DNA from: an uncultured Clostridia bacterium | GTDB taxonomy: Bacteria; Bacillota; Clostridia; Oscillospirales; Acutalibacteraceae | Assembly: GCA_947623175.1 (NCBI GenBank) | Contig: CANQGK010000005.1 | Span: 39,702 to 103,701, forward strand | Length of the DNA: 64,000 nt | Direction of reading: 5' to 3' | Shown here: in pieces, positions 62,906-63,237 of the stretch | How positions within the stretch are numbered: the first letter of the stretch is position 1 | How the letters are laid out: each line of letters opens with the position of its first letter | The notes under the pieces: generated by a model | The model's input: the letters and a program-made list of their open reading frames with translations, nothing else | The model's database searches: none | Told to the model about the DNA's origin: nothing | Position numbers and translations under genes: made by a program

Positions 62906-62933
62906 TGACTACATAATTTATATTATGTAGTCA
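62906..62933. repeat. Candidate recombination site, left copy
   Basis: TGACTACATAA-TTTATA-TTATGTAGTCA. Confidence 0.9.
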
Positions 62934-62959
62934 AATAAGGCGCCCGGGGATAAAAAAGC

Positions 62960-63002
62960 GGAACGCGGGAGCAAAAAACGGTGGTTTTTGCGGAGGCGTT
63001 CC
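62960..63002. other. Long hairpin inside the putative invertible segment
   Basis: GGAACGC..GCAAAAA..TTTTTGC..GCGTTCC nested inverted repeats. Confidence 0.7.
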
Positions 63003-63064
63003 GAGGAATTTACGGATTTATTATGTGATTGTTTTGTAAATTTGTAAAAACAGGCGCGGAAATT

Positions 63065-63105
63065 AAGCCGGAAAAAAATTTGTTTTTTCGCCGGCTTGGT
63101 TTTTA
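63065..63105. terminator. Terminator-like hairpin inside the putative invertible segment
   Basis: AAGCCGG-AAAAAA..TTTTTT-CG-CCGGCTT followed by GGTTTTTA. Confidence 0.7.
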
Positions 63106-63147
63106 TGCAATAAATTTACAAAATTTTGAATTTTTTTGTAATTTTAC

Positions 63148-63176
63148 TTGCAAAAGTTATATTGCTGTGATATAAT
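63148..63176 (+). promoter_or_regulatory. Sigma-A-like promoter inside the putative invertible segment
   Basis: TTGCAA-17 bp-TATAAT. Confidence 0.8.
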
Positions 63177-63209
63177 CACCTATGTAATAAGTGCGACAGC
63201 ATTTGGAGT

Positions 63210-63237
63210 TGACTACATAATATAAATTATGTAGTCA
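63210..63237. repeat. Candidate recombination site, right copy (exact reverse complement of left copy)
   Basis: TGACTACATAA-TATAAA-TTATGTAGTCA. Confidence 0.9.

What the first reader, a model, noticed from the sequence alone, without database searches (positions are those of the whole stretch)
62906..63237. Candidate invertible promoter (inverton) next to a tyrosine recombinase
Seen directly: TGACTACATAA-TTTATA-TTATGTAGTCA at 62906-62933 and its exact reverse complement at 63210-63237. Each copy has 11-bp palindromic arms around an asymmetric 6-bp core, the layout of tyrosine-recombinase core sites. Because the cores are opposed, recombination would invert rather than excise the intervening 276 bp. 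That segment has no ORF but has a consensus promoter (TTGCAA-17-TATAAT, 63148-63176). A tyrosine recombinase gene abuts the right site. Recombinase-linked invertible promoters are an established phase-variation mechanism in gut bacteria. That this specific site is active and is used by the neighbouring recombinase is inference.
Basis: partly seen in the sequence, partly recalled or inferred. Interest (0 to 1): 0.92.

Follow-up and report, generated by a model that had tools for sequence, protein, structure and literature searches.

The report
Recombinase-linked invertible promoter (phase switch)
A gut Clostridia genome carries a small DNA segment with a promoter that a neighbouring recombinase very probably flips back and forth to switch a cell-surface protein gene on and off; this switch type is known, but here it belongs to a very large recombinase family whose inversions can be seen by comparing related genomes.

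Summary
Two exact inverted copies (29 bp) of a palindromic 11-6-11 site flank 276 bp carrying a promoter, and a catalytically intact Xer-like tyrosine recombinase ends inside the right site: its stop codon is part of the site. Of 62 related recombinase loci with enough flank, 58 have an inverted site pair directly 3' of the recombinase; controls gave 0 of 53, 0 of 59 and 0 of 62. The sites share ACATAA-N6-TTATGT. Of 64 segments, 43 hold a strong outward-pointing promoter 13-49 bp from a site (shuffles: 0.9%). Four pairs of related loci have collinear recombinases with the site-to-site segment reversed; in three the downstream gene is collinear too. So this family inverts in nature. In the window the promoter faces the recombinase, so the switch is probably OFF. 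The likely target is the co-oriented SipW-type GLUG surface protein at 60492-61901, although it starts 1 kb away. The host genome has at least seven 5' ends of this recombinase. Activity at this locus itself remains undemonstrated. A published Clostridia inverton group with a linked tyrosine recombinase is probably the same kind. Verdict: real, a new member of a known kind.

The parts
62906..62934 (.). Distal (left) crossover site: TGACTACATAA-TTTATA-TTATGTAGTCA plus 1 bp; 29-bp inverted-repeat arm
   Evidence: matches the family consensus ACATAA-N6-TTATGT
63209..63237 (.). Proximal (right) crossover site, exact reverse complement of the left site; overlaps the stop codon and last codons of the recombinase
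   Evidence: same overlap (offset -6) in L074, L076, L077, L078, L079 and L104
62935..63208 (.). Invertible segment (274 bp between the 29-mers, 276 bp between the 28-mers), no ORF of 60 aa or more
   Evidence: family median 239 bp between arms
63148..63176 (+). Promoter TTGCAA-17-TATAAT with extended -10, pointing outward across the right site toward the recombinase 3' end (probable OFF state)
   Evidence: -10 ends 32 bp from the 29-bp arm, as in the family (13-49 bp; 43 of 64 segments)
63205..63242 (+). Site hairpin followed by T7: terminator-like; would stop the antisense transcript in the OFF state
   Evidence: -20.4 kcal/mol, z -7.8
63060..63102 (+). Hairpin within the segment, upstream of the promoter, followed by TTTTT; possible insulator or terminator
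   Evidence: -18.5 kcal/mol, z -3.5
62959..63003 (.). Second hairpin in the distal half of the segment
   Evidence: -22.3 kcal/mol, z -4.7
63227..64000 (-). Xer-like tyrosine recombinase (257 aa seen; the first ~30 residues lie beyond the contig end); R, K, H-x-x-R, H and Y catalytic residues intact
   Evidence: 99% identical copy on contig C4
60492..61901 (-). Probable target: SipW-dependent-type signal peptide protein with GLUG motif, co-oriented with the recombinase, start codon 1.0 kb beyond the distal site
   Evidence: similar to the target at locus L084 (34.5% over 249 aa, E 3e-28)
61902..62905 (-). Long leader between distal site and target, with duplicated genome repeats (62095-62236 and 62492-62633, 97% alike); no - strand terminator-like site and no convincing separate promoter found

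Best explanation
This is a recombinase-linked invertible promoter (inverton). The Xer-like tyrosine recombinase, or one of its near-identical copies in the genome, pairs the two opposed sites, exchanges strands across the 6-bp cores and flips the 276-bp segment. In the sequenced orientation the promoter at 63148-63176 fires toward the recombinase 3' end, and its short transcript would end at the site hairpin plus T-run (OFF). After inversion the same promoter lies about 32 bp inside the left site and reads leftward through a 1-kb leader into the SipW-type GLUG surface or matrix protein (60492-61901), switching it ON. Because both arms are identical, the recombinase stop codon, which lies inside the right site, survives every inversion. 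Shown: the sites, promoter, intact recombinase, family-wide conservation of the layout, and natural inversions in related loci. Inferred: activity at this locus, which recombinase copy acts, and the target.
For: Exact inverted site pair with 0 expected by chance. In 58 of 62 family loci an inverted pair of 15 bp or more lies directly 3' of the recombinase; 0 of 53, 0 of 59 and 0 of 62 in three controls. 55 of 63 proximal sites contain exact ACATAA-N6-TTATGT and none of these 55 has a palindromic core. 43 of 64 segments hold a strong outward promoter 13-49 bp from a site (0.9% in shuffles), 38 facing the recombinase and 5 the target. The first gene beyond the distal site is co-oriented in 52 of 56 loci. 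L098/L087, L098/L090 and L149/L105 have collinear flanks with the segment reversed; L149/L143 has a collinear recombinase with the segment reversed. Catalytic residues are invariant. Targets elsewhere include SipW-type proteins, SipW signal peptidases, LRR and List-Bact adhesins, and regulators. A 55% identical paralog on the same contig has three such sites in front of an AMP-ligase/MBOAT operon.
Against: No reads, so no direct evidence that this copy flips. The target is 1 kb from the distal site and behind repeats, whereas most family targets start within about 100 bp. A weaker promoter-like match (TTTACA-17-CATAAT, 63048-63020, - strand) already points left in the sequenced orientation, so OFF may not be absolute; promoter-like counts in the region (5) are little above shuffles (2.7). 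38 SipW-type genes occur in this genome, so adjacency to one could be coincidence at roughly the 1-2% level (own estimate).
Confidence: 0.9

Rival explanations
1. The inverton is real and active, but its target is not the SipW protein: it either acts only as an antisense or termination switch at the recombinase 3' end, or its original target was displaced by the repeats now lying between.
For: 1-kb gap filled with duplicated genome repeats. The promoter faces the recombinase in 38 of 43 clear family cases. The C4 copy has the promoter and site but no partner site and lies beside guaB, which has its own promoter.
Against: 52 of 56 family loci have a co-oriented gene beyond the distal site, and SipW-type genes are targets elsewhere. 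No terminator-like site was found between distal site and gene on the - strand.
Confidence: 0.3
2. A once-active switch that is now locked: the sites are intact but the recombinase copy is dead or not expressed.
For: The recombinase 5' end is off the contig, so its start and promoter were not seen for this copy.
Against: Perfect 29-bp arms, all catalytic residues, no stop codons; the copies whose 5' ends were seen have a conserved RBS and promoter-like leader.
Confidence: 0.08
3. The palindromes are operators for a transcription factor, or bidirectional terminators, and not recombination sites.
For: Each copy is a strong hairpin, and the right one is followed by T7.
Against: The cores are always opposed, the sites track a tyrosine recombinase in 58 of 62 loci, and the segment between them is reversed in related loci with breakpoints at the sites.
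Confidence: 0.01
4. The recombinase and site are one end of a small mobile element dispersed in the genome, and the second site is incidental.
For: Two 99% identical recombinase copies with identical site and promoter but different flanks, and seven 5' ends with a shared ~110-bp leader and unrelated flanks.
Against: Opposed cores give inversion, not excision. Relatives are mostly in fixed gene contexts with two sites. No element ends or target duplications could be defined because contigs break inside the gene.
Confidence: 0.12

Closest known systems
Clostridia inverton group 139 with linked tyrosine-type recombinase 'invertase group 35' (hCom2 community, PMC11892184)
   Same: Clostridia, tyrosine-type recombinase next to the inverton, IRs of roughly 14-26 bp and ~200-230 bp between them in the two published examples, read-level evidence of flipping in Clostridium sp. 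D5 and Intestinimonas butyriciproducens
   Different: IR motif and recombinase sequences are in supplements that could not be read, so identity with this family was not tested; that paper does not (in the parts read) describe the stop-codon overlap or multi-copy expansion
Clostridioides difficile RecV switches (flagellar switch, cmrRST; PMC7446863, PMC8844915)
   Same: Tyrosine recombinase inverting a short promoter or leader segment between inverted repeats in a gut Clostridia
   Different: One recombinase acts in trans on dispersed switches (general knowledge); here the site is fused to the recombinase 3' end and the recombinase is itself multi-copy. No sequence comparison was made
Bacteroides Mpi and other Bacteroidales invertible promoters
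   Same: Invertible promoter in front of surface genes
   Different: Different phylum, promoter type and recombinases (general knowledge); not compared by sequence
Xer recombinases and dif sites
   Same: Recombinase is Xer-like (best NCBIfam match XerA_Arch, below its cut-off; closest solved structures XerA/XerC-like and XerD); 11-6-11 site with ATAA-N6-TTAT
   Different: Sites are paired, inverted, promoter-flanking and multi-copy; the recombinase fails the XerA/C/D equivalog cut-offs

Membership tests
Tyrosine-recombinase invertible promoter (inverton) | Inverted repeats flanking a short non-coding segment | tested here: met
   29-bp exact IRs, 274 bp between
Tyrosine-recombinase invertible promoter (inverton) | Promoter inside the segment near one end, pointing outward | tested here: met
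   TTGCAA-17-TATAAT 32 bp from the arm
Tyrosine-recombinase invertible promoter (inverton) | Linked recombinase with intact catalytic residues | tested here: met
   N-terminus beyond contig end
Tyrosine-recombinase invertible promoter (inverton) | Both orientations observed | tested here: inconclusive
   Seen for related loci, not for this locus; no reads available
Tyrosine-recombinase invertible promoter (inverton) | Co-oriented downstream gene whose expression depends on orientation | not testable with these tools
   Candidate SipW-type gene 60492-61901 is co-oriented; expression not testable
Inverton group 139 / invertase group 35 (PMC11892184) | Shared IR motif and recombinase clade | not tested
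C. difficile RecV system | Recombinase orthologous to RecV acting on dispersed switches | not tested
XerC/XerD/XerA chromosome resolution | Recombinase above the XerA/C/D equivalog cut-off and a single dif site | tested here: not met
   152.7 of 220, 122.4 of 335 and 121.5 of 330 bits; three sites in the genome

The most novel reading that the evidence does not exclude
The host genome runs a network of at least seven near-identical recombinase cassettes that share the same crossover site, so that any copy can flip the others, and recombination between cassettes (for example C4 and C5) rearranges the chromosome. Several cassettes would control members of its 38-strong SipW-type surface or matrix protein family, making a coordinated surface-antigen lottery driven by interchangeable recombinases.
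Probability: 0.25. Interest if true: 0.72.

Novelty: new member of a known kind. Interest (0 to 1): 0.5.

Why it matters
It adds a well-anchored member to recombinase-linked phase switches and shows that they form a very large recombinase family in gut Clostridia, with a recognisable site (ACATAA-N6-TTATGT) fixed at the 3' end of the recombinase gene, sometimes inside its stop codon. That gives a simple rule for finding such switches and their targets in assembled genomes without reads, and points to SipW/TasA-type matrix proteins, adhesins, pilins and regulators as phase-variable traits in largely uncultured bacteria.

Tried and rejected
A degenerate second site near the C4 copy was sought and not found. 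No ortholog of the exact window locus was found among 60 relatives: the best same-genus recombinase is 58% identical, so the window's own orientation could not be compared. The idea that the contig-edge SipW genes (C14, C24, C47) are the missing targets of the other recombinase copies could not be tested: they share the window gene's 5' DNA, but their upstream DNA is absent. No Rfam family at 60000-64000. The MITE/TIR and operator readings were rejected because of the family-wide linkage and the reversed segments. Several literature searches gave nothing on this exact family.

Full report
OBSERVATION. The two sites are exactly where stated and are exact inverted repeats of 29 bp. No match to the 11-N6-11 pattern is expected by chance in 64 kb. 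The window is contig C5:39702-103701 of an unnamed 2.38-Mb draft genome in 54 contigs, and its last base is the contig end. The recombinase (63227-64000, - strand) is therefore truncated at its 5' end. Its stop codon is the TAA of the right site's ACATAA. The promoter at 63148-63176 is real as a pattern (10 of 12 matches, 17-bp spacer, TG before the -10) and points at the recombinase.

RECOMBINASE. It carries the Phage_integrase and SAM-like N-terminal domains (on the longer C4 copy) and is Xer-like, but falls below every Xer equivalog cut-off. The closest solved structures are XerA/XerC-like and XerD. In an alignment of 13 relatives the R, K, HxxR, H and Y residues are invariant. A protein search scored 8000 candidates, 7998 of them significant, so the family is very large.

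FAMILY TEST. 80 related loci were fetched from a one-genome-per-species collection by protein patterns alone. Of the 62 with at least 600 bp of 3' flank, 58 have an inverted repeat of 15 bp or more spaced like this one. A region 2 kb downstream gave 0 of 53, the 5' flank 0 of 59 and shuffled sequence 0 of 62. The first site starts -11 to +73 bp from the end of the stop codon, with a median 239 bp between arms. 55 of 63 proximal sites contain ACATAA-N6-TTATGT; none of these 55 cores is palindromic, which makes the sites directional. In six loci, including the closest relatives L074, L076, L077, L078 and L079, the recombinase stop codon is the TAA of the site, as in the window.

PROMOTER LOGIC. 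A strong promoter is present in 45 of 64 segments. In 43 of them it points outward, with the -10 13-49 bp from the arm, against 0.9% in shuffles; 38 face the recombinase and 5 face the far side. The window fits exactly (32 bp, facing the recombinase). The first gene beyond the distal site is co-oriented in 52 of 56 loci.

DIRECT COMPARATIVE EVIDENCE OF INVERSION. L098 and L087 are collinear through the recombinase (83% over 912 bp) and through the downstream gene (74% over 594 bp), but the segment including both sites aligns in reverse (74% over 321 bp) with breakpoints at the sites. L098/L090 and L149/L105 show the same. L149/L143 shows a collinear recombinase with the segment reversed; no downstream alignment was found for that pair. 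This shows that the family inverts in nature; it is not evidence from the window's own locus.

TARGET. Read leftward from the distal site, the next gene is a co-oriented 469-aa protein with a SipW-dependent signal peptide and GLUG motif. It starts 1 kb away behind duplicated repeats. No - strand terminator-like site lies between them, and the only promoter-like match near the gene overlaps its RBS. A SipW-type protein is also the target at L084 (34.5% over 249 aa), and SipW-type proteins or SipW signal peptidases recur among targets. Other targets include LRR and List-Bact repeat proteins, TetR regulators and a GGDEF protein, and prepilin-like genes in relative G042 (read by eye). Because the genome holds 38 SipW-type genes, adjacency alone is weak evidence; I put this target at about 0.6.

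COPIES IN THE GENOME. A 99% identical recombinase with an identical site and promoter lies at the end of contig C4, upstream of guaB, but without a partner site. Homology between C4 and C5 begins at window 63131. Seven contigs carry the recombinase 5' end with a shared ~110-bp leader and unrelated flanks. A 55% paralog at C5:14.0-14.9 kb is followed by three sites (two direct, one inverted, core ACGGCA) and then an AMP-ligase/MBOAT operon, a textbook layout. Relative G042 has at least seven related copies, two of them followed by prepilin-like genes. How copies disperse is open.

LITERATURE. PMC11892184 reports Clostridia inverton group 139 (33 invertons, 32 from Clostridia) linked to a tyrosine-type recombinase group, with reads showing flipping in two species. 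That is probably the same kind, but motif identity could not be tested. RecV of C. difficile is the best studied analogue.

VERDICT. Real and very probably functional; a known kind, with good new comparative support and an unusual multi-copy setting.

Noticed in passing
window 26476-26487 (gene from 26376; kinase frame 26498-27157): A run of 12 C lies in the 5' coding part of a capsule tyrosine-autokinase gene (TIGR01007). As assembled, the upstream ATG frame stops and does not join the kinase frame: candidate slipped-strand phase variation, or a homopolymer assembly error.
   Followed up: partly
L215 (C50), L216 (C29), L220 (C54), L053:11405 (C45), L057:4514 and 7556 (C12): Poly-G tracts of 10 or 11 lie near the starts of SipW-type genes. 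On C50, C29 and C54 the tract is inside a short conserved leader ORF (MK..Q.T.IPMGGG...), and its length differs between copies: a possible second phase-variation device.
   Followed up: partly
L011:6050-7373 (C5 about 14.0-15.4 kb, outside the window): A paralogous recombinase (55%) with three palindromic sites (two direct, one inverted) directly upstream of an AMP-ligase/MBOAT operon: a second, cleaner inverton in the same genome.
   Followed up: yes
L066-L073 (G042): A related genome has at least seven recombinase copies; the two with assembled 3' flank are followed by a prepilin-like gene (GFTLVELIVVIAILAILAAVAYP): possible phase-variable pilin family. Most copies lie at contig ends.
   Followed up: partly
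window 62095-62236, 62492-62633, 62720-62819 and upstream of SipW genes on C29, C38, C50: Dispersed repeats (TCTCCCTCAGTCGGC...CCCTCGTCAGATGGAGCC and CCTCCCTTGCCTAAAGGGAGG) lie upstream of SipW-type genes.
   Followed up: no
L154-L160, L164 (IMG/VR contigs): Contigs filed as viral also carry this recombinase with a 3' inverted site pair; whether they are prophages or misfiled host DNA was not examined.
   Followed up: no
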